A DNA stretch of 11,577 nucleotides, from positions 1 through 11,577 of the forward strand of contig JAPLSP010000416.1 in NCBI GenBank assembly GCA_026398575.1. The letters run 5' to 3'. The DNA is from Candidatus Sumerlaeota bacterium (GTDB lineage Bacteria > Sumerlaeota > Sumerlaeia > JADFCT01). This document shows positions 1,028-9,758 of this stretch, piece after piece (within the stretch, counting starts at the first letter, position 1; each line of letters starts with the position of its first letter). Made by a program: the position numbers and the translations under genes. A model generated the notes under the pieces. That model was not told where the DNA came from. It did not search any database and was given only the letters and a program-made list of their open reading frames with translations.

Positions 1028-1102
1028 CCTTTCTATTCCTTAAAATATTGGTCCACATTTCCTTTTTCAATCGCCGCGCTCACAAGCGGGCTCCGCCTTT
1101 TA

Positions 1103-1200
1103 GTTTGGCGCTGAAGGGTAGGCCGTCCCGCTCCGTCGGGCGGCAACAGCGCGCCAAGGCCGCCCGACGGAGCGGGACGACCTACCCTTCGGCGCCAAAC
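1103..1200. repeat. 42-bp-arm near-perfect palindrome just after the permuted binding-protein gene
   Basis: Bases 1103-1144 and 1159-1200 are inverted copies of each other over 42 positions with two non-Watson-Crick positions (1112 and 1123), around a 14-nt loop. The outer arm reads GTTTGGCGC and the inner arm is very GC-rich (GTCCCGCTCCGTCGGGCGGC). The palindrome begins 3 nt beyond the stop codon of the permuted binding-protein gene and fills half of the gap before the SGNH hydrolase. It could act as a transcript-end hairpin or mRNA 3' stabiliser. No T-run follows it, so it is not a classical Rho-independent terminator. It could also be a mobile palindromic repeat unit. Confidence 0.9.
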
Positions 1201-1203
1201 CGC

Positions 1204-2214
1204 TCAGGACCCAACCTTTTTGGCGGCGAGACGCTTGACGATGTATTCGCCGGCCAGCGCGGCGCCGGCTTCGTTGTCCGTGGCGACGTGCGCGCGCACC
1301 GCGGGATGCTCGACGCGCGTATCCACCGTGACGATGGGGATGCCGGCCTTCTGCGCCTTGTCAAAGGTGTCTTTGAGTCCGCGCGAATCCACGGCGCCGA
1401 CGAGGAGGCCGTCCACCTTGCTCAGGATCGCGTTATCGAGCGCGGCCTTTTGCTGGTCCATTTCCGGCTTGGCCGCGGTCAGGTCTTTGAAAGTGACGTC
1501 CAATTCCCTGGCGGCCTTGTCGGCGGCGTCCTTCATTGTTATCCAGAAAGGAGTGGTCGAAGAAAAGCCGACGTAGGCGATGGTGAAGCTTTTCTTGCCG
1601 GCGGTCGCGCTCGTCTGGCCGCTGCCGGCTTCCGGTATCGGCGCGTCCAAATATTTGTCCACATTACTCTTTTCAATCAGCGTAGGGGCGATGGGCGTAT
1701 TGGCCGGAACGGTCTCGCCTTTCAGAATCTTGACCAGCAATTGCAGTCCCTGCCGGCCCATTTCTTCCGGATGCTGCATCACGGTGGCGTCCACTTCGCC
1801 CGCCTTCACCGCTTTCATGGCGTCTTTGTTGCCGTCGAATCCCACGAGGACAATCTGCCCCAACTTGCCCTTGCCTTTGACAACCTGTTTGGCGGCGAGG
1901 ATCATCGGATCGCAGGCGCCGAAGATCGCTCCGAGATCGGGCTGGGCCGTCAGTTCGGCTTGAGTGATTTCATTGGCTTTGCTGTCGCTCCAGTCCGCCG
2001 GGCGGAAGATGACCTGCATCCCGGCCTTCTTGCAGGCGTCCTCGACGCCTTTGCGCCGCGCGTCGCCGGTCTGGTGTCCGACCGTTCCGCCCAGGATCAG
2101 GACCTTCGCATTCGGAGCAGACTCCTCTTTCGAACACCCCATCATCACCGCTGCAAAGGCGATGGCCGCCGCAAGCGCAATGCCTGCTGTCAGGCTGGTT
2201 CTCAGTTTAGACAT
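1204..2214 (-). CDS. Circularly permuted sugar ABC-transporter substrate-binding lipoprotein
   Basis: A 336-residue periplasmic binding protein of the RbsB-like type I fold (Peripla_BP_4 group) with its halves in reversed order. A signal peptide (1-26) ends in MMGC, so Cys27 is the likely lipidated residue. Residues about 36-189 match the C-terminal part of the neighbouring binding protein (KVLILGG, RRKGVE, FRPADW, KANEITQ, CDPMI, GEVDATV, SIAPTLI-like, NVDKYL). A linker rich in Gly, Ser, Thr, Pro and Ala (190-206) follows. Residues about 208-333 match the normal N-terminal part (AYVGFSST, DNAIL, KVDGLL, GAVD, VEHPAV, AGEYIVKR). The chain then stops at KKVGS, where the normal protein runs straight into KILILGG. 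One uninterrupted frame, a strong AAAGGAGGA ribosome site and a signal peptide argue for a functional gene. It probably feeds the RbsC-like permease upstream; the ligand is unknown. Confidence 0.92.
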   Translation of the reverse strand: MSKLRTSLTAGIALAAAIAFAAVMMGCSKEESAPNAKVLILGGTVGHQTGDARRKGVEDACKKAGMQVIFRPADWSDSKANEITQAELTAQPDLGAIFGACDPMILAAKQVVKGKGKLGQIVLVGFDGNKDAMKAVKAGEVDATVMQHPEEMGRQGLQLLVKILKGETVPANTPIAPTLIEKSNVDKYLDAPIPEAGSGQTSATAGKKSFTIAYVGFSSTTPFWITMKDAADKAARELDVTFKDLTAAKPEMDQQKAALDNAILSKVDGLLVGAVDSRGLKDTFDKAQKAGIPIVTVDTRVEHPAVRAHVATDNEAGAALAGEYIVKRLAAKKVGS

Positions 2215-2356: not shown

Positions 2357-2515
2357 TCACGGCCTGGTCGCAGTGCCGCTGGTTACGGGAGTCTTTGTAA
2401 CCGCAGGAGTCTTTACGGGCGTAGGAGGCGTTGTCTCTGTCTTATCGCATCCCATGGTCACCATCGTAAAAGCCATCAACGTCGCAAACGCTACTGCCAT
2501 CGCCATCTTCTTCAT
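2357..2515 (-). CDS. Small lipoprotein: signal peptide plus Pro/Thr linker only
   Basis: A 52-residue gene. A Lys-Lys start and hydrophobic stretch (4-20) lead to TMGC with Cys23 as the likely lipidated residue, then DKTETTPPTP and a Thr/Pro/Val/Lys tail to the stop, with no folded domain. A strong AAAGGAGGA ribosome site sits 7-8 nt before the ATG at 2515, and a consensus-like promoter lies about 70 nt upstream, so it is likely translated. The AF..V.MGC[DS]K stretch resembles the front of the permuted binding protein made from the next gene. It may be a remnant of an ancestral binding-protein gene that kept only its signal and linker, or a genuine small lipoprotein like entericidin-type peptides. 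Asp at position +2 after the Cys would favour inner-membrane retention under the E. coli rule, which may not hold here. Confidence 0.7.
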   Translation of the reverse strand: MKKMAMAVAFATLMAFTMVTMGCDKTETTPPTPVKTPAVTKTPVTSGTATRP

Positions 2516-2655: not shown

Positions 2656-3771
2656 TCAGGGCGCCAGATACTGATCCACGTTGTTTTTATCAATCAAGGT
2701 GGGCGCAATGGAAACCATGGTGTCAATCTCTTCGCCGTTAAGGAGCTGAACCATCATCTCCATGCCCTGCCTTCCCATGCGCGCCGGGTCCTGGCGCACG
2801 GTGGCGTCCACTTCGCCGGACTTGATCGCCTTGAGGCAGGCGGGGATGCCGTCATAGCCGACCAGCAGAATTTTGCCGCCCAGACCTTTGCGCTTTACGG
2901 CTTGTTTGGCCGTCATGATCATCGGATCGCAGGCGGCAAAGATGCCGGTGATGTCCGAGTGCGTCGCCAACTCATTCTGGGTGATTTCGTTGGCCTTGTT
3001 TTCCAGCCAGTCGGCGGGGCGGAAGAGAACTTCGATCCCGGCTTTTTTGCACGGCTCTTCGACGCCCTTGCGGCGATGCTCGGCGGCCATCGAACCGAGG
3101 TTGCCGCCGAGGATGAGAATCTTGCCCTTGCCGTTCATGCGCTTGACGATGTAGTCGCCCGCCAGCCCCGCGCCCGCCACTTCGTCCGTATAAAGGCGGC
3201 TGAAAACCGCCGGATGCTCGCCGACCCATTCGCCAACGGCGATGACGGGGATGTTGGCGGCCTTGGCCTTGTCGAGCGAATCCGTCAAGCCGCGCGGGTC
3301 CACGGCGCCGAGCAGCAGGCCGTCCACTTTTTTCAGGATGGCGTTATCTATCGCGGATTTCTGTTCGATCACGTCGGGCTTGGTCGCCGTCAGGTCCATG
3401 AAGTTGACGCCGAGTTTTTTGGCCGATTCCTGCGCGCCAGTTTTGACCGTCAGCCAGAAGGCGTTGGTCGAGGAATAGCCGATATAGACGATCGCAGGCG
3501 GTTTGGTTTTAGTGTCTATCGCCGGGCGCTTGACTTTGGGGACGGCGGGCTTGACTTCAGAAACGGCGGGCTTGGTTTCAGGGGCAGCGGGCTTGGTTTC
3601 AGGGGCAGCGGGCTTGGCTTCAGGGGCAGCGGGCTTGGCTTCAGGGGCAGCGGGCTTGACGCCGGGCGCTGGCGCGCCGTTTTCCGGCGCCGCGCTCATT
3701 TTGTCCACCCCTATCCCTATCATCGCCAGCGCCATCAGAAGCGCCGGAAATCCTATGATTCGGGGGTGCAT
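2656..3771 (-). CDS. Sugar ABC-transporter substrate-binding protein (normal domain order)
   Basis: A 371-residue periplasmic binding protein of the RbsB-like CUT2 type. A signal peptide (about 5-26) ends in MSA-AP, a type I site without a lipobox Cys. An unusually long Pro/Ala/Lys linker (about 27-92) has repeated KPAAPE[AT] heptads. The binding fold runs in the usual order. First comes the N-terminal part (93-216: YIGYSST, DNAIL, KVDGLLLGAVD, GEHPAV, AGDYIVKR), then the C-terminal part (217-369: KILILGG, RRKGVE, FRPADW, KANEITQ, CDPMI, GYDG, GEVDATV, SIAPTLI, NVDQYL). It follows the permease by 233 bp. By eye it is roughly 60% identical to the permuted gene in the shared C-terminal segment. 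AAAGGA precedes the ATG by about 9 nt. The Cys-Asp-Pro-Met motif corresponds to the Asn-Asp-Glu-Met region of RbsB; the ligand cannot be predicted. Confidence 0.93.
   Translation of the reverse strand: MHPRIIGFPALLMALAMIGIGVDKMSAAPENGAPAPGVKPAAPEAKPAAPEAKPAAPETKPAAPETKPAVSEVKPAVPKVKRPAIDTKTKPPAIVYIGYSSTNAFWLTVKTGAQESAKKLGVNFMDLTATKPDVIEQKSAIDNAILKKVDGLLLGAVDPRGLTDSLDKAKAANIPVIAVGEWVGEHPAVFSRLYTDEVAGAGLAGDYIVKRMNGKGKILILGGNLGSMAAEHRRKGVEEPCKKAGIEVLFRPADWLENKANEITQNELATHSDITGIFAACDPMIMTAKQAVKRKGLGGKILLVGYDGIPACLKAIKSGEVDATVRQDPARMGRQGMEMMVQLLNGEEIDTMVSIAPTLIDKNNVDQYLAP
3544..3669. repeat. 21-bp tandem repeat encoding the binding-protein linker
   Basis: Six consecutive 21-bp units start at 3544, 3565, 3586, 3607, 3628 and 3649. 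The middle four are nearly identical and the outer ones diverge. Each unit encodes one KPAAPE[AT]-like heptad of the linker between the signal peptide and binding domain of the normal-order binding protein. The unit length keeps the frame, so copy number could change linker length without breaking the gene. Confidence 0.9.
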
Positions 3772-3810
3772 GATTGTTTATCCTTTCGATCAAAGATTAT
3801 GAATCGCCAT

Positions 3811-3934
3811 GGACAGACACGGACTGACACCGACCTACACGGACCTACACGGACCTACACGGACGCGCTCCTTATAGCTGATCTTTGCCTGTCCGTGCCC
3901 GTCCGTGTCTGTCCGTGCCCGTCCGTGTCGGTCC
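3811..3934. repeat. Decameric repeats in inverted arrays between permease and binding protein
   Basis: The left array (3811-3864) has five 10-bp units of the type GGACCTACAC plus a partial. The right array (3891-3934) has four units of the reverse-complement type GTCCGTGTCT/GTCCGTGCCC plus a partial. The two arrays face each other across a 26-bp centre and can fold into a long imperfect hairpin; GGACAGACACGGAC on the left has an exact inverted match on the right. It fills most of the 233-bp gap and could define the 3' end of the permease message, but no T-run follows the stem. Confidence 0.85.
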
Positions 3935-3956
3935 AGCAAGCACCCCCGCCCCCGTC

Positions 3957-4004: not shown

Positions 4005-4940
4005 CTACGCCCTCTGTCTTCGCTGCAAATAATCAATCCATACCGCGACGATGATCACGCATCCAATGGCGACCAGCTGCCAGTACGATCCGACGCCGCA
4101 CTGGATCAGCCCCGCATAGAGCGACTTGATGATCAGGACGCCGATGATGGTGCGCCCGACGCCGCCCATGCCGCCGAAAAGGCTCGTGCCGCCGATGACC
4201 GCCGCCGCGATGGCCTGCAACTCGTAGCCGTCGCCGCGGTTGGGCGTCGCAAAGTCGAAACGCGAAGTCTCGACCACCGCCGCCAGCCCCGCCAGCAGTC
4301 CGCCCAGACTGTAATACATCACGCGATAGCGCTTGACCGGCACGCCTGAAAGCCGCGCCACCTCCTCGTTGCCGCCGATGGCGAAGCAATTGAATCCGAA
4401 TTTGGTCTTCGCCAGCAAAAACGCCACGACGACCACGACCACAGCAGCAATGGTCACGGGAACCTTGTATCCGAAGCCAATCGCTTTGAAGGTATCGGGG
4501 AAGGCCGACATGTCGCGCCCTTCGCCGAGCATATTGGCGAACCCTCGCGCAATCATCATCGTGCCCAGCGTGACAATGAAGGACGGAACGCCCGTCCAAA
4601 TCACCGTCAGCCCGTTGAGCATTCCAATGAGCAGTCCGACAATCAGCCCGGAAGAAACCGCCATCCAGACAGGCGCCTTGGCCGTGAGAAACGCTCCCAC
4701 CACGCACGTCACCAGCGCCAGATTCGACCCGACCGAGAGATCAAGCCCGCCGGAGATCAACACGACCGTCGTCCCGACCGCCATGATCGCGAGCACAACG
4801 GATTGCTCCAGGAGGCCGCTGAAATTATCATAGGAACGATAGCTGGGCGCCAGAATGAGGAAAATCACCTCGATTAAAATCAAGCCCACAACGGCTTGGA
4901 GACTTTTTTTTATTTGCCGCATCATGGAACCAGATAACAT
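4005..4940 (-). CDS. Sugar ABC transporter permease, RbsC-like (CUT2)
   Basis: A 311-residue inner-membrane permease of the BPD_transp_2 (RbsC/XylH/MglC) family, near the usual family length of about 320. It has about eight to ten hydrophobic segments. Family landmarks are ISGGLDLSVGS (63-72), VTLGTM near 123-128, the cytoplasmic coupling motif GGNEEVARLSGV (189-200), which corresponds to the conserved GGNxxAAxxSGI of this family and contacts the ATPase, and the ELQAIAAAVIGGTSLFGG stretch (240-257). It would form a homodimeric channel with the ATPase encoded upstream and receive substrate from one or both binding proteins. AAAGG lies 8 nt before the ATG at 4940. It follows the antitoxin-like gene by only 18 bp, so the two are probably cotranscribed. 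Confidence 0.94.
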   Translation of the reverse strand: MLSGSMMRQIKKSLQAVVGLILIEVIFLILAPSYRSYDNFSGLLEQSVVLAIMAVGTTVVLISGGLDLSVGSNLALVTCVVGAFLTAKAPVWMAVSSGLIVGLLIGMLNGLTVIWTGVPSFIVTLGTMMIARGFANMLGEGRDMSAFPDTFKAIGFGYKVPVTIAAVVVVVVAFLLAKTKFGFNCFAIGGNEEVARLSGVPVKRYRVMYYSLGGLLAGLAAVVETSRFDFATPNRGDGYELQAIAAAVIGGTSLFGGMGGVGRTIIGVLIIKSLYAGLIQCGVGSYWQLVAIGCVIIVAVWIDYLQRRQRA

Positions 4941-4958: not shown

Positions 4959-5219
4959 TCAGCATAATCCTAAGTTTTTCTTAATTTTCTTCCAAGGAAT
5001 CAATCCGGGCTCTTTGCGCGCCTCCTTAATCGCTTGGCGATCGAGCCGATCCTCTTCTTCTTTTGACAATCTTTCAAGCAGCGCGGCGTCTTCAATGGAA
5101 ATGAGAACGGCGACGTCTTTTTGCCTGCGGCTTAATACAAAGCGCTCGTTTTTGCGGGTCACGCGATCCAACAAGTCGCCCGTTTCGCGCCGAAGCGCCG
5201 TGGTTGATCTCCGAGTCAT
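4959..5219 (-). CDS. Orphan Phd/YefM-type antitoxin-like protein
   Basis: An 86-residue protein. The N-terminal part (5-50) has the Phd/YefM pattern: RRETGDLLDRV, then ERFVLSRRQKDVAVLISIEDAALLE, similar to the DNA-binding antitoxin fold with R-x-x-K-x-VAVL-x-S-x-ED. The tail (about 60-85) has the ARKEPGLIPWKKIKKNLGL style seen in antitoxins paired with ParE/RelE toxins. The frame is open to 5255, but the ATG at 5219 is preceded by GGGAGAA and starts the conserved region. No toxin gene is adjacent: the next gene downstream is the permease, 18 bp away. It sits between the transporter ATPase and permease, and may be a leftover of a toxin-antitoxin pair or a regulator that was captured there. Confidence 0.8.
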   Translation of the reverse strand: MTRRSTTALRRETGDLLDRVTRKNERFVLSRRQKDVAVLISIEDAALLERLSKEEEDRLDRQAIKEARKEPGLIPWKKIKKNLGLC

Positions 5220-5288
5220 TTTCTGTTTCTCCCATCCAGTTTTCGCTAACGTCAACTTCCCAAGTATGAATAACGCCCGGCGTGGCCG

Positions 5289-6815
5289 TCAAGCCCCGAT
5301 GGCCACACGCAAGATGTCCTCTTCCTGCGCCTCGCCGCGCTGGAATTCCTTGCGGATTTTTCCGCGATGCATCACCAGGATGCGGTGGCTCATTTCGAGC
5401 GCCTCGGTATAGTCCGATGTCATCATCACGATCCCGACGCCCTGTTCGAGCAGTTCGCGCATGATGCGGTAAACTTCGGCGCGGCCCTTGATGTCAATCC
5501 CGCGCGTCGGCTCGTCGAAGAGCAGGACCTTGCACCGCGCCCCCAACCATTTGGCCAGTACGATTTTTTGCTGGTTGCCGCCGGAGAGCTGGCCGGCGTT
5601 CGTATCGCGTCCCGGCGCTTTGACTTGCAGTTCGCGCATATACCCGTCAACTTCCGAGTCAATCCGGCGATGGCGCGTCAGGCCGCCCGGACTTAAGCGG
5701 TCAATGTTCGGCAGCGCGTAGTTGTTGCGAATGCTCTGGTCCAGAATCAGCCCCTCGGTCTTGCGGTTTTCAGTCAGGTAGGCGATCCCGTTGCGAATGG
5801 CGCGCGAGGGAGTGCGGTGACGGACTTTTTTTCCGTGAACGATAATCTCGCCCGCGTCATACAAGTCCACGCCCGCGATGGCACGCGCCAGCTCGGTCTT
5901 GCCCGCGCCCATCAATCCCGTGACGCCGACGATCTCGCCGCGCCGCACCGAGAAGGATATGTCATCCAGGCGCCGCCCCTGGCTCAGATGCTCGATGCGC
6001 AGCGCCTCATCCGCCGCCGGCGCGGGGAGGTCGGGATATTGCTTCTTCACCTGTCCGCCGATCATTTTTTCGATCATGCTGTCGAGCGTCAGTTCGCTGA
6101 TCGGATACGTCCCGGCGTTATGCCCGTCGCGCAGGATCGTGACGCGGTCGCCCAGTTCATAGACCTCGGCATAGCGGTGCGAGATGTAGATGAATCCAAC
6201 CTGATGGCTCTGCTTGAGCTTGTTGATAAGGTCGAACAAGTCATGCCGCGAGCGGTCTTCGAGGACGTCGGTCGGCTCGTCCAGAACGAACGCCTTCGCT
6301 TCGGTCACCAGCGCGCGCGCGATCTCGACCATCTTCTGCTGTGTGACGCTGAGCCGCCCGACGATCTCATGGGGATCGAGGTCAATGTGGAAGCGCTTGA
6401 GGTATTCGCGCGCGCGGGAGTAAAGCGCGCGCTTATCCACCAGGCCCAGCGCCCTGACCGCCATCGGCTCCATCCCCAGGAACATGTTGCGCGCGATGTC
6501 AATCTGCGGGACGAGGTTGATTTCCTGGTAAATGAAGCGCAGCCCTTTGTCGAGCGGGACCTGCGGGGAAGTGATCTCGACGCGCTCGCCCTGGATGAAG
6601 ATGTCGCCTTCGTCATGCGAATACGCGCCGCTCAGGACTTTGATGAGCGTGCTTTTGCCCGCGCCGTTTTCGCCGAGCAGAATATGAACTTCGCCGGGGA
6701 GCAATTCGAAATCCACATGATCCAACGCCAGCACGCCGGGAAAACGCTTGACGATGCCTTTCATCTGGATGAGGGGCGGGGGCGCGGCGGGAGGCTGGAT
6801 GGATGGGGAAGTCAT
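5289..6815 (-). CDS. Sugar ABC transporter ATP-binding protein, RbsA/MglA-like (double NBD)
   Basis: A 508-residue cytoplasmic ATPase with two nucleotide-binding domains, the usual length for CUT2 ATPases. Domain 1: Walker A GENGAGKST (48-56), Q-loop Gln97, signature LSVTQ (155-159), Walker B ending VLDE (177-180), and H-loop ISHR with His213. Domain 2: Walker A GLMGAGKT (300-307), signature LSGGNQQ (410-416), and Walker B LLFDE (431-435). TSD in place of the H-loop His (466-468) is usual for the degenerate second half in this family. The frame extends to 6992, but the ATG at 6815 is preferred: it follows the HicB-like stop by 13 bp and precedes a short Pro-rich stretch and the first strand. 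There is no clear Shine-Dalgarno, so translation may be coupled to the gene before it. It partners with the RbsC-like permease. Confidence 0.94.
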   Translation of the reverse strand: MTSPSIQPPAAPPPLIQMKGIVKRFPGVLALDHVDFELLPGEVHILLGENGAGKSTLIKVLSGAYSHDEGDIFIQGERVEITSPQVPLDKGLRFIYQEINLVPQIDIARNMFLGMEPMAVRALGLVDKRALYSRAREYLKRFHIDLDPHEIVGRLSVTQQKMVEIARALVTEAKAFVLDEPTDVLEDRSRHDLFDLINKLKQSHQVGFIYISHRYAEVYELGDRVTILRDGHNAGTYPISELTLDSMIEKMIGGQVKKQYPDLPAPAADEALRIEHLSQGRRLDDISFSVRRGEIVGVTGLMGAGKTELARAIAGVDLYDAGEIIVHGKKVRHRTPSRAIRNGIAYLTENRKTEGLILDQSIRNNYALPNIDRLSPGGLTRHRRIDSEVDGYMRELQVKAPGRDTNAGQLSGGNQQKIVLAKWLGARCKVLLFDEPTRGIDIKGRAEVYRIMRELLEQGVGIVMMTSDYTEALEMSHRILVMHRGKIRKEFQRGEAQEEDILRVAIGA

Positions 6816-6828
6816 GGCGATGAATGCA

Positions 6829-7044
6829 TCATGCGGCGATGGCGATAAGGCCCGCTGTAGTTGCGAGCTGAGGGATTGGTTTGCCTTCTTCTTTGAGCGC
6901 TTCAATATATAGTTCGATAGCTTCCTGCATGAGCGCCTTTGTTTCCTCAAGAGTATCCCCGCACGCAATGCAGCCGGGCAAATCCGGCGCATAGGCGGAA
7001 TAATTTCTTCCGGCGCGTTCGTAGATGACTACATATTCGTTCAT
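6829..7044 (-). CDS. HicB-like (UPF0150) protein without an adjacent HicA
   Basis: A 71-residue protein of the HicB antitoxin fold: YVVIYERAGRNYSAYAPDLPGC (4-25) followed by TLEETKALMQEAIELYIEALKEEG (31-54) and a KPIP motif. It has no ribbon-helix-helix or helix-turn-helix extension, so it probably cannot bind DNA by itself. The ATG at 7044 is preceded by GGAGGA at 6 nt, a better start than 7074. The partner HicA normally lies directly next to such genes, but here there are only 46 bp to the preceding HicB. It ends 13 bp before the ATPase start. It may be a free-standing HicB or the survivor of a second HicAB pair. Confidence 0.85.
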   Translation of the reverse strand: MNEYVVIYERAGRNYSAYAPDLPGCIACGDTLEETKALMQEAIELYIEALKEEGKPIPQLATTAGLIAIAA

Positions 7045-7090
7045 TTTAGTTCCTCCAATTCCGCAAGAGGCCAATGAAATTGCACACAGG

Positions 7091-7414
7091 CTAATGAACT
7101 GCGGACTGCAAAAGAGTTTTTATCCACGTATTCAAACTCGCCTTTTCGGCACGTGCGCGCGATAGGAGCTTATGGTGAAGCGCAGGTTCCACGCGGACAA
7201 CAAATCTCCCAGAACATGCTTTCTCCGGTAATTCTCCACGTTCGGCGCAGAATTCGAGGTAGTCATCCACCGAATCGCGAAACGCCTTGCGCAGCTCTTT
7301 TACGCTGGCGCCTTGAAAAGTGACCACGTCGCGCAGACCGATAACTTCGCCATGAAAGACGCCGGCGTCATCGTCATAGTCCACGCTCGCCTTATATCCC
7401 TTATACTCCATCAT
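7091..7414 (-). CDS. hicB: HicB antitoxin with C-terminal ribbon-helix-helix domain
   Basis: A 107-residue antitoxin. The N-terminal HicB domain (1-60) has YKGYKASVDYDDDAGVFHGEV, GLRDVVTFQG and VKELRKAFRDSVDDYLEFC. The C-terminal segment (69-104), GRFVVRVEP followed by HHKLLSRARAEKASLNTWI, is an Arc/MetJ-type ribbon-helix-helix for DNA binding and autoregulation. GGGAG lies 6 nt before the ATG at 7414. That start codon lies inside the end of hicA (14-bp overlap), the usual HicA-HicB coupling. It would neutralise the HicA toxin and repress its own operon. Confidence 0.9.
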   Translation of the reverse strand: MMEYKGYKASVDYDDDAGVFHGEVIGLRDVVTFQGASVKELRKAFRDSVDDYLEFCAERGELPEKACSGRFVVRVEPALHHKLLSRARAEKASLNTWIKTLLQSAVH

Positions 7415-7664
7415 GTTGAACTCCCGCCTCATTGAGAAACCGTCGCACGGATCGAACCGCTCCTTTGCATGCTTCTTTGCGGGGATGCGGCCGGTGAAAA
7501 ACCGCGCGTACGCCATTCAGAGCCACGCGAATTCTTGAGCCACGGCCTTCTGAAACCTCCGCGTTCAACGCGATAAACAGCGATTCAATATCTGTCCACG
7601 CGATATCGGCGCGATCAGGCGTCTCGAGAATCTTGGCAAGAATTTTTTTATGCCGTGAATTCAC
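7401..7664 (-). CDS. hicA: HicA-family mRNA interferase toxin
   Basis: An 87-residue HicA toxin of the class whose members start MNSxHxKxLAxI. Starting at the GTG at 7664 gives NSRHKKILAKIL, matching that family start as I recall it; the longer TTG start at 7700 would add 12 unsupported residues. Further family hallmarks are IAWTDIESLF, GAEVSEGRGSR-like (here NAEVSEGRGSR), VRAVFHRPHPRKE with the conserved catalytic-region His, and VRRFLNEAGV at the end. HicA toxins have a double-stranded-RNA-binding-like fold and cleave mRNA. There is no clear Shine-Dalgarno before the GTG; a tiny upstream frame (7648-7713) overlaps the start and may couple translation. It overlaps hicB by 14 bp. Confidence 0.87.
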   Translation of the reverse strand: MNSRHKKILAKILETPDRADIAWTDIESLFIALNAEVSEGRGSRIRVALNGVRAVFHRPHPRKEACKGAVRSVRRFLNEAGVQHDGV

Positions 7665-7713
7665 GGGCGATTTTGATATCAGATTGTGGCGCCAGGTCAA
7701 GATAAATTGGCAT
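7648..7713 (-). CDS. Possible 21-residue leader frame overlapping nrfA stop and hicA start
   Basis: An ATG overlaps the nrfA stop codon in the arrangement TAATG and opens a 21-residue frame (MPIYLDLAPQSDIKIAREFTA) ending at a TAA 14 nt past the hicA GTG. Ribosomes ending nrfA could reinitiate here and deliver translation to the hicA GTG, which has no visible ribosome site. There is no homology that I recognise, and a frame of this length can occur by chance. Confidence 0.25.
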   Translation of the reverse strand: MPIYLDLAPQSDIKIAREFTA

Positions 7714-9137
7714 TAGGGCGTTGGCTTCGCTGGTTTGGGCGCGGCCAGCGCGTTCTGTCCGCGCCGGCAATAGTCCATGGCGATCGCCATCAGCCGCGCG
7801 CTTTCTTGTGGCGCGTGGAAGCCCATCGAGTTTTCGGCGTTGATGAAGTCTATCAGGAACTGCGCCTTGCGCTGCCAGTCGCGCGAAGCGGCTAGCGACT
7901 CATTCGCCGTCCCCGCGTCCATCGCCGCCTTAATCCCGGCGATCAAATCCATCAGCGCATTGAGCGACAAGTCCTGCAACTCAGCGGTGGTATTTTGGAT
8001 CCGCTCGACGCGGGCCTTGAGCTCGCTTTCGGGAAAACGATGGCAGGTTTGGCAGGCGTTGTTGACGTTGAGCAGCGGGCTTTGCACGTGGTGATCGCTG
8101 ATCTTGAGCGAACCGACGCGCTTATATGGCATGTGGCAATCGGCGCACGCCACGCCCGAACGCGCATGGATGCCCTGACGCCACAGCTCGAACTCCGGAT
8201 GCCGCGCCTTCTGGCAGGTTGCGCTGGTGATCGCGTGAGTCCAGTCGGTGATTTTTATTTCATCCAAATAAGCCTGCTCCTCATCGCCGCGCACGCCTTT
8301 GTTCCAGGGGAATGAGAGGATGCGCCCCTGCTTTTCGCCGGGCAGGACGTAGTTGACATGGCACTGCGCGCAGACGAAGGAACGCATCTCCTGCCGGGTG
8401 GCCATCGTGTTGACGTCGTAGTCCTTGACGCCTTCATGCTCTTTCAGCGCCTTGATGCCTTGCATGAAGGCGGGGCGGGAAATGCGCAACTGCATCGTGG
8501 CCGGATCATGACAGTCAATGCAGGCGATGGGATGCGTCACCAGCTTGCGCGCTTCCTTATAGGGCATGGCGCACATCTTCTCGAATCCCTTGACGAGGTC
8601 GCCGCCTCCCAGCTTTTTGTTCTCAACGTAATTGGAGGCGTGGCATTGGATGCAATTGCCATATTGAGGCTTTTTTTGGCGTTCGGTATAGGATTGATCA
8701 TCGAGCATATAGGCGTGGCCGCGCCGTTCGCGGTAGTCAATGGAGAAAGCATAGCCCGCCCACATCGTCTTCAGGCGCGGCTCCAGGTCGAGCCTCGAGC
8801 GGGCGACCGTCTTGCGCGGATCGGCCTGAGTCGGCGTGCGCGGCAGCGCCTCGCTTCCGCCGAAGCGCGTGCGGACCTGGTCCGTGGTCTTCAGGTAGCC
8901 GTCATACTGAAAAGGAAAATCCTTGCCCCATAACGCCGGGTCCTCTGTTTGGTCGTTGAGTTCGACGACCCGGAAGAAAGGATTCTTCGCCTCCTGTTTG
9001 CGCTCGAAGATATTGACCAGCAGCGCCGTGACCCCCAGCGCGGCAATTGCCGCGCCAATGGCCGTCAACGCCATGATCAGGATGATCTTGCGCAGCGAGA
9101 CGCTGATGGAAATTTTGTAGTCATGTTGCTCGCTCAT
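7713..9137 (-). CDS. nrfA: Cytochrome c nitrite reductase, pentahaem NrfA, atypical haem-1 and calcium-site residues
   Basis: A 474-residue periplasmic enzyme reducing nitrite to ammonium with six electrons. An uncleaved-looking hydrophobic N-terminus (about 17-44) anchors or exports it. The five haem motifs are CIQCH (162-166), CIDCH (206-210), CAQCH (256-260), CADCH (331-335) and CQTCH (362-366). Haem 1 is CXXCH, not the CXXCK of E. coli-type NrfA. Active-site context is conserved: WAGYAFSIDY with RRGH (138-141), Tyr263 in HVNY, and His313 in KARHPEFE. Two positions that are calcium ligands in classical NrfA are changed, Glu to Asn262 and Gln to Arg312. Further distal-haem histidines are present in SDHHV and GFHAPQE. 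The arrangement matches NrfA throughout, rather than octahaem Otr/Hao types. GGAAGGG lies 6 nt before the ATG. nrfH is directly upstream. Confidence 0.93.
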   Translation of the reverse strand: MSEQHDYKISISVSLRKIILIMALTAIGAAIAALGVTALLVNIFERKQEAKNPFFRVVELNDQTEDPALWGKDFPFQYDGYLKTTDQVRTRFGGSEALPRTPTQADPRKTVARSRLDLEPRLKTMWAGYAFSIDYRERRGHAYMLDDQSYTERQKKPQYGNCIQCHASNYVENKKLGGGDLVKGFEKMCAMPYKEARKLVTHPIACIDCHDPATMQLRISRPAFMQGIKALKEHEGVKDYDVNTMATRQEMRSFVCAQCHVNYVLPGEKQGRILSFPWNKGVRGDEEQAYLDEIKITDWTHAITSATCQKARHPEFELWRQGIHARSGVACADCHMPYKRVGSLKISDHHVQSPLLNVNNACQTCHRFPESELKARVERIQNTTAELQDLSLNALMDLIAGIKAAMDAGTANESLAASRDWQRKAQFLIDFINAENSMGFHAPQESARLMAIAMDYCRRGQNALAAPKPAKPTP

Positions 9138-9278: not shown

Positions 9279-9758
9279 TTATTCCATGTGCCCAACGGAC
9301 GCATGGCACTTGATGCATGACAGCCGGTCTTTTCCGATGTGGCGGTAGTCTATCTCCTGCACAACGCGCTCATGACACCTGCGGCAGGCGTTCTCCGTGA
9401 TGGCGATGTTGCGGGGCGTGATCTGGATCGGCTCGTGGAAGCGCTGCGTCGTGAAAGCGAGCGAATGATGCCAGCCGTTGGAAGCCTTCGTCATGTACTT
9501 GCCGATGAAGTCGTGAGGCGTGTGGCAATCGTTGCAGACGGCCACTGCGTGATGGCTGCCCTTGGCCCAGGCGTCGAGGTGATTGCGCATGATGTGGCAG
9601 TTGGCGCAGATGGCCGGATCGTTTGAAATATAAGAGGCGCCTTTCGCATAAAAGAACGTATAGCCGCCGATTCCCGCGGCAAGACCAATGGCCAGTCCCA
9701 TCGCCACGGCGGCCATCGCGATTTTTTTATGGCTGGCCGTTTGCAGAAATCCCATCAC
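9279..9758 (-). CDS. nrfH: NrfH/NapC-family tetrahaem quinol dehydrogenase
   Basis: A 159-residue membrane-anchored cytochrome c that oxidises quinol and passes electrons to NrfA. An N-terminal transmembrane helix (about 13-38) is followed by four haem motifs: CANCH (51-55), CNDCH (75-79), CRRCH (125-129) and CIKCH (148-152). CANCHIM has the Met two residues after the haem His (Met57), the CXXCHxM arrangement that supplies the unusual haem-1 ligand in NrfH. The length is typical of NrfH and shorter than NapC (about 200). The frame starts GTG-ATG: AAAGGG precedes both, and the ATG at 9755 is the likelier start. It is the first gene of the minus-strand series and lies 141 bp from nrfA, separated by a tandem repeat. 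Confidence 0.93.
   Translation of the reverse strand: MMGFLQTASHKKIAMAAVAMGLAIGLAAGIGGYTFFYAKGASYISNDPAICANCHIMRNHLDAWAKGSHHAVAVCNDCHTPHDFIGKYMTKASNGWHHSLAFTTQRFHEPIQITPRNIAITENACRRCHERVVQEIDYRHIGKDRLSCIKCHASVGHME

What the first reader, a model, noticed from the sequence alone, without database searches (positions are those of the whole stretch)
1204..2214. A sugar-binding protein encoded in circularly permuted order beside its normally ordered paralogue
Aligning the two binding proteins segment by segment shows that residues about 36-189 of this protein match 216-369 of the neighbour, and residues about 208-333 match 93-216. The start of the permuted body (AKVLILGG) and its end (VKRLAAKK then VGS-stop) fall at one homologous point, VKRMNGKG-KILILGG in the neighbour, with no domain duplicated or missing. 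Known RbsB-type proteins run N-lobe, C-lobe, N-lobe, C-lobe; this cut lies just inside the C-lobe, between its first helix and the next strand. A lipobox signal peptide was placed in front of the new start, and a Gly/Ser/Pro/Thr linker joins the old ends. Engineered permuted binding proteins exist, but I do not recall a natural example beside its unpermuted paralogue. It may change how the receptor is tethered and docks on the permease.
Basis: partly seen in the sequence, partly recalled or inferred. Interest (0 to 1): 0.93.

Follow-up and report, generated by a model that had tools for sequence, protein, structure and literature searches.

The report
Lobe-swapped sugar-binding protein with debris
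A bacterial gene encodes a sugar-transport binding protein with its two halves in swapped order, next to a normally ordered relative, and sequence debris just past its end suggests that it likely arose when the gene was doubled and then trimmed at both ends.

Summary
The permutation is real. The protein at 1204-2214 (-) matches its neighbour (2656-3771) in two clean blocks in reversed order (59% and 57% identity), cut between helix alpha4 and strand betaF of the predicted models.

Natural precedents exist: Treponema pallidum TpMglB-2 (published 2016, another cut) and, by my alignments, PDB 5ER3 of Rhodopirellula baltica (top structural match, cut one strand-helix unit later).

New here is the likely origin. 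Three bases past the stop codon stands a 98-base palindrome, and beyond it, in frame, the end of a second C-lobe (IEKGNVDQYFKE-stop). The ORF's last codons (LAAKKV) match C-lobe helix codons in 18 of 19 bases. Relatives include double proteins with two nearly identical binding domains (21 of 21 checked), and one Chloroflexi operon of the same transporter type has such a protein. I conclude permutation by duplication: [N1-C1]-[N2-C2] lost N1 and C2.

The protein keeps 44 of 45 residues that are invariant in 24 relatives, so it is probably functional. No second permuted homologue was found in what was searched, and no reads were available. New variant of a known kind.

The parts
1204..2214 (-). 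permuted binding-protein gene, 336 aa; AGGAGG upstream at 2224-2229
2134..2214 (-). signal peptide up to Cys27 (MMGC), likely lipoprotein
   Evidence: read from the translation; no predictor run
1648..2106 (-). first block, residues 37-189: old C-lobe part from betaF to the old C-terminus (C1)
1585..1647 (-). linker, residues 190-210; resembles the linkers behind the lipid cysteine of normal relatives
1219..1584 (-). second block, residues 211-332: old N-lobe part up to alpha4 (N2)
1212..1230 (-). LAAKKV codons, 18 of 19 bases identical to 1881-1899 (LAAKQV in the C-lobe block): probable scar of a second C-lobe
1103..1200 (.). 98-base palindrome, arms of 42 bases, 95% complementary, hairpin -96.2 kcal/mol
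1033..1089 (-). remnant of a second C-lobe: PLVSAAIEKGNVDQYFKE-stop, in the frame of the permuted gene
   Evidence: weak
2656..3771 (-). normal-order RbsB-like binding protein (neighbour)
4005..4940 (-). ABC permease (BPD_transp_2)
5289..6992 (-). double ABC ATPase

Best explanation
The gene at 1204-2214 (minus strand) encodes an RbsB-like substrate-binding protein in circularly permuted order (second lobe, linker, first lobe), which likely arose from a tandem-doubled gene by loss of the first copy's N-lobe and the second copy's C-lobe, and which is predicted to fold into one two-lobed binding protein that would serve the neighbouring ABC permease. Shown by calls: the order, the collinearity with double proteins, the remnant of a second C-lobe behind a palindrome, the LAAKKV match, the conserved ATPase-permease-binding protein operon and the retained invariant residues. 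Predicted: the fold. Inferred: the history [SP-N1-C1-linker-N2-C2] with N1 deleted behind the signal peptide and C2 eroded at the palindrome; export as a lipoprotein tethered through the other lobe; sugar binding between the lobes; delivery to the same permease as the normal neighbour, perhaps with another sugar preference because the loop around residues 126-150 differs from that of the close relatives.
Against: The permuted order is seen on one contig only. No double protein of its own clade was found: P0121-P0141 are 38-45% identical to it over the alignment and sampled ones fall in another clade. The full-length profile gives the remnant only E 0.95, and its DNA match to the neighbour does not exceed shuffles. 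N1 left no detectable trace. Conservation may mostly predate the permutation. Two C2 scraps are short.
Confidence: 0.72

Rival explanations
1. A decaying remnant: a tandem double binding protein is being lost, and the leftover C-lobe plus N-lobe is a non-functional fragment that only happens to add up to one domain.
For: C2 is visibly eroded; the signal-peptide junction and the stop could be by-products of deletions; an unpermuted neighbour could do the work.
Against: 44 of 45 invariant columns kept; open frame with signal peptide and AGGAGG; both ends lie at one structural boundary, so each element is present once.
Confidence: 0.15
2. Permuted by another route: two half-genes joined in new order (fission and fusion), or a C-lobe copy pasted in front of an N-lobe.
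For: No double gene is seen in its own clade; fission and fusion is an accepted route (PMC3320104, passages).
Against: Double proteins occur in the family and in a related operon; C2 scraps follow N2 in the expected order and strand; no separate half-genes were seen in the 9 relatives' operons.
Confidence: 0.12
3. An assembly artefact of a normal or double gene.
For: One contig only; the palindrome is a typical misjoin point (general knowledge); near-identical tandem halves do trouble assemblies: P0010, on a 1460-base contig, begins with 38 residues that recur at its end.
Against: Collapse of a tandem repeat cannot join the signal peptide in frame to betaF or end the ORF after N2 (reasoning); no repeat of 12 bases or more found in 1900-2660 spans the signal-peptide junction; the far side of the palindrome again holds a binding-protein tail in the same orientation and frame.
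Confidence: 0.05

Closest known systems
TpMglB-2 (Tp0684) of Treponema pallidum, 'Type Ic / Cluster Bc' (PDB 5JX2, 6BGC)
   Same: Natural circularly permuted type I sugar-binding lipoprotein; four instead of three crossings between lobes would also result here (inferred). Foldseek ranks 9-11 for the model.
   Different: Its cut lies in the N-lobe after the third strand, with the C-lobe order unchanged (passages); here the cut lies in the C-lobe between alpha4 and betaF.
PDB 5ER3, solute-binding protein of Rhodopirellula baltica
   Different: Cut one strand-helix unit later (inferred); about 21-23% identity; no paper on it in the library.
RbsB and other normal-order type I binding proteins
   Same: Both lobes and their conserved residues.
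Double binding proteins P0121-P0141 and the one at L006/L012
   Same: C1-linker-N2 is collinear with the permuted protein.
   Different: Two whole domains; another clade.
Engineered RBP-CPC of Thermotoga maritima (PMC9815098)
   Same: N-terminus moved to residue 128, betaF first and alpha4 last: the same boundary as here (passages).
   Different: An isolated single lobe designed in the laboratory.

Membership tests
Type I (RbsB-like) substrate-binding proteins | Sequence homology over both lobes (Peripla_BP_4) | tested here: met
   E 1.8e-50 in two stretches
Type I (RbsB-like) substrate-binding proteins | Canonical order, N-lobe start first | tested here: not met
Type I (RbsB-like) substrate-binding proteins | Binds a sugar and closes on it | not testable with these tools
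   needs protein
Type Ic / Cluster Bc (TpMglB-2) | Circular permutation of the type I fold | tested here: met
   definition from passages
Type Ic / Cluster Bc (TpMglB-2) | Cut in the N-lobe after strand 3, C-lobe order unchanged | tested here: not met
   cut between alpha4 and betaF of the C-lobe
5ER3-like order | Collinear match across the junction | tested here: met
5ER3-like order | Same cut point | tested here: not met
   5ER3 keeps betaF and the next helix at its C-terminal side: neighbour 94-240 on 185-328
Permutation by duplication | Tandem double form in relatives | tested here: met
Permutation by duplication | Double form in the same clade | tested here: inconclusive
   none found (capped at 7998 candidates, 120 of 148 listed)
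Permutation by duplication | Traces of the removed copies at the locus | tested here: met
   second C-lobe scraps; none of the first N-lobe
Lipoprotein | Signal peptide with lipobox | tested here: inconclusive
   MMGC fits -1 Gly and +1 Cys only (pattern recalled); no predictor run

The most novel reading that the evidence does not exclude
A natural binding protein in which the two lobes have exchanged chain order exactly at the boundary of the ancestral half-size unit, caught soon enough after the event that the trimmed second C-lobe still lies as debris at the locus: a natural snapshot of circular permutation by gene duplication, with an unpermuted relative serving the same transporter next door.
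Probability: 0.6. Interest if true: 0.74.

Novelty: new variant of a known kind. Interest (0 to 1): 0.6.

Why it matters
Natural circular permutations are usually recognised long after the event (general knowledge). Here three stages of the textbook route appear in one transporter family: single gene, fused double gene and permuted gene, and the permuted locus still holds scraps of the missing half. It shows that the type I binding fold can be reopened at a third natural place, the alpha4/betaF boundary that engineers used to isolate a lobe, and it makes the question of what permutation changes (tethering, closing, docking) testable against a natural unpermuted neighbour.

Tried and rejected
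No whole genome is held for the window, so no other contig of the organism could be read. A genome-contig scan with the permuted protein confirmed no relative (27 stretches matched a pattern, none encodes one); with the normal-order alignment it gave 11 loci. The NrfA search meant to place the organism gave scattered names (Hydrogenedentes, Acidobacteriota, Verrucomicrobiales and others), so the taxon stays unknown; among the 9 loci L001-L009, ATPase and permease are most like those of a Planctomycetota MAG (77% and 67%). The palindrome was sought in 199 genomes of that phylum (5 with short partial matches) and in viral contigs (0): its family is unknown. No Rfam match at gathering score and no tRNA in the window. 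The small lipoprotein ORF (2357-2515) as the discarded original N-terminus was considered: its signal peptide resembles that of the permuted gene in protein (62, maximum of 300 shuffles 33) but not in DNA (22, shuffle maximum 26); left open. A self-BLAST for internal repeats printed none, not even the repeat in P0010, so it was replaced. TpMglB-2 is not among the sequence hits shown (60 of 78); nothing is concluded from that.

Full report
OBSERVATION. The minus strand of the window carries an ABC sugar-transport operon: double ATPase (5289-6992), permease (4005-4940), a normal-order RbsB-like protein (2656-3771) and the gene in question (1204-2214). The last two proteins match in two blocks in reversed order, 90 of 153 and 70 of 122 residues identical. 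Against a doubled neighbour the match becomes one path (score 810 against 483), while cross-matched halves score 40 and 25. This is circular permutation, not chance.

IS THE PERMUTED ORDER SEEN ELSEWHERE? The protein search gave 174 hits, of which 120 are listed. Of the 119 other than the query itself (the window's neighbour is one of them), 77 were classed as normal order by the script and 42 were read by eye from the printed blocks: 38 normal, 3 with one block only, and P0010, which carries a C-terminal piece in front of a whole normal domain; none permuted. The 54 unlisted hits were not seen. In the 9 genomes of L001-L009, 8 had normal order and one (Chloroflexi, L006/L012) a double protein of 630 residues. 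In 392 + 301 + 296 genomes of three phyla, 11 had a match at E 1e-25 or better; the only matches running across the junction were in that same Chloroflexi genome, in frames of 630 and 904 residues (these counts include G001, G006 and G009 again, and at most 5 or 7 candidates per genome were scored).

ORIGIN. Four observations point to a doubled gene. (1) Double proteins exist in the family: 21 of 21 checked (P0121-P0141) have two domains 90-100% identical to each other; the operons they lie in were not seen. The Chloroflexi one lies between a permease 61% and an ATPase 70% identical to the window's. The more distant long hits (P0142 onward) were not checked. (2) Three bases past the stop codon stands a 98-base palindrome (hairpin -96.2 kcal/mol, z -11.4), and beyond it, in the same frame, PLVSAAIEKGNVDQYFKE-stop. 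A profile of 32 C-terminal tails finds in 419 six-frame pieces the two intact genes and then this piece (E 0.0043; next 1.0). As protein it scores 45 against the permuted gene's C-end (maximum of 2000 shuffles 35) and 39 against the neighbour's (36). Its DNA matches the permuted gene's own C-end over 30 bases at 87% (score 40, shuffle maximum 23-24), but not the neighbour's beyond shuffles (21 against 24-25). A full-length profile gives it only E 0.95. (3) The last codons, LAAKKV, match the C-lobe's LAAKQV codons in 18 of 19 bases; 2000 codon shuffles reach at most 16, and 361 other 19-mers of the N half reach at most 15 against the C half. (4) The linker resembles the linkers behind the lipid cysteine in normal relatives: P0006 GQASAQPGKKAYT against GQTSATAGKKSFT (score 42, shuffle maximum 37; the best of 34 N-termini tried, not corrected for that). 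Together they fit [SP-N1-C1-linker-N2-C2] with N1 lost behind the signal peptide and C2 eroded to a helix scar and a tail on either side of the palindrome. This is the textbook route of permutation by duplication (PMC3320104, passages). Against it: no double protein of the gene's own clade was found, the order of events is inferred, and N1 left no trace that the lobe profile could find.

IS IT FUNCTIONAL? It keeps 44 of 45 columns invariant in 24 relatives, the one change being D to H where relatives read RQDP and it reads MQHP. Third-position GC equals that of its neighbours (0.77; 0.74-0.78 in five others). C-half codon differences to the neighbour are 48, 27 and 83 of 153 at positions 1, 2 and 3, but most of that divergence may be older than the permutation. 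AGGAGG lies upstream of the start codon. Both cuts fall at one structural boundary, so each element is present once. I conclude that function is likely, as a second binding protein of the same transporter; its loop GFDGNKDAMKAVKAG..TVMQHPEEMG looks more like the ribose-binding proteins aligned than like its closer relatives, so another sugar preference is possible (inference).

TRANSPORTER CONTEXT. In 7 of the 9 loci L001-L009 an ATPase 60-77% identical to the window's lies with a permease (51-67%) and the binding protein; in L007 and L008 the ATPase match is about 31%. The neighbour groups with P0025, not with the permuted protein, in both half trees, so the two window genes are old paralogues.

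COMPARISON WITH THE KNOWN. There are two: TpMglB-2, whose crystal structure, glucose binding and closing were measured and which its authors call Type Ic / Cluster Bc (PMC4990184; abstract and passages seen), and 5ER3, which my alignments show to be permuted and for which a whole-word search of the library listed only unrelated papers. The cuts differ: TpMglB-2 in the N-lobe, 5ER3 one strand-helix unit after the cut found here (inferred from aligned ranges). The boundary found here equals that of an engineered isolated lobe, RBP-CPC (PMC9815098, passages). Full-text searches for natural permuted or tandem binding proteins listed no paper with this cut or with locus debris, judged by titles and abstract starts only; most subscription papers are not held.

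VERDICT. Real, a new variant of a known kind; the debris at the locus is the most interesting part. The main weakness is that the permuted order rests on one contig.

Noticed in passing
2357-2515 (-): A 52-residue ORF between the two binding-protein genes: signal peptide, MGC, Pro/Thr-rich tail, stop. Its signal peptide resembles that of the permuted gene; no Pfam match. Possibly a discarded front end of a binding protein, or a small lipoprotein of its own.
   Followed up: partly
2234-2289: A second palindrome (25-base arms, 84% complementary) just upstream of the permuted gene; it also scans as a terminator-like site on the + strand.
   Followed up: no
4959-5255 (-) and 6829-7700 (-): A Phd/YefM-type antitoxin gene between ATPase and permease, and HicA/HicB-type genes upstream of the ATPase: toxin-antitoxin genes inside and beside a sugar operon.
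   Followed up: no
P0121-P0141; L006/L012; G006:C169: Double binding proteins whose two halves are 90-100% identical within each protein, and a 904-residue frame in the Chloroflexi genome that matches repeatedly: repeat homogenisation in periplasmic binding proteins.
   Followed up: partly
3521-3688 (-): The neighbour's signal peptide is followed by a repeated KPAAPE-type linker (21-base repeats) and has no cysteine there, so the two binding proteins are probably tethered differently.
   Followed up: no
3810-3935: Repeats of a 10-base unit in inverted arrangement (GGACAGACAC... and its complement) between permease and neighbour gene.
   Followed up: no
7713-9137 (-) and 9279-9758 (-): Ammonia-forming nitrite reductase NrfA and a NapC/NirT-type small cytochrome.
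   Followed up: partly
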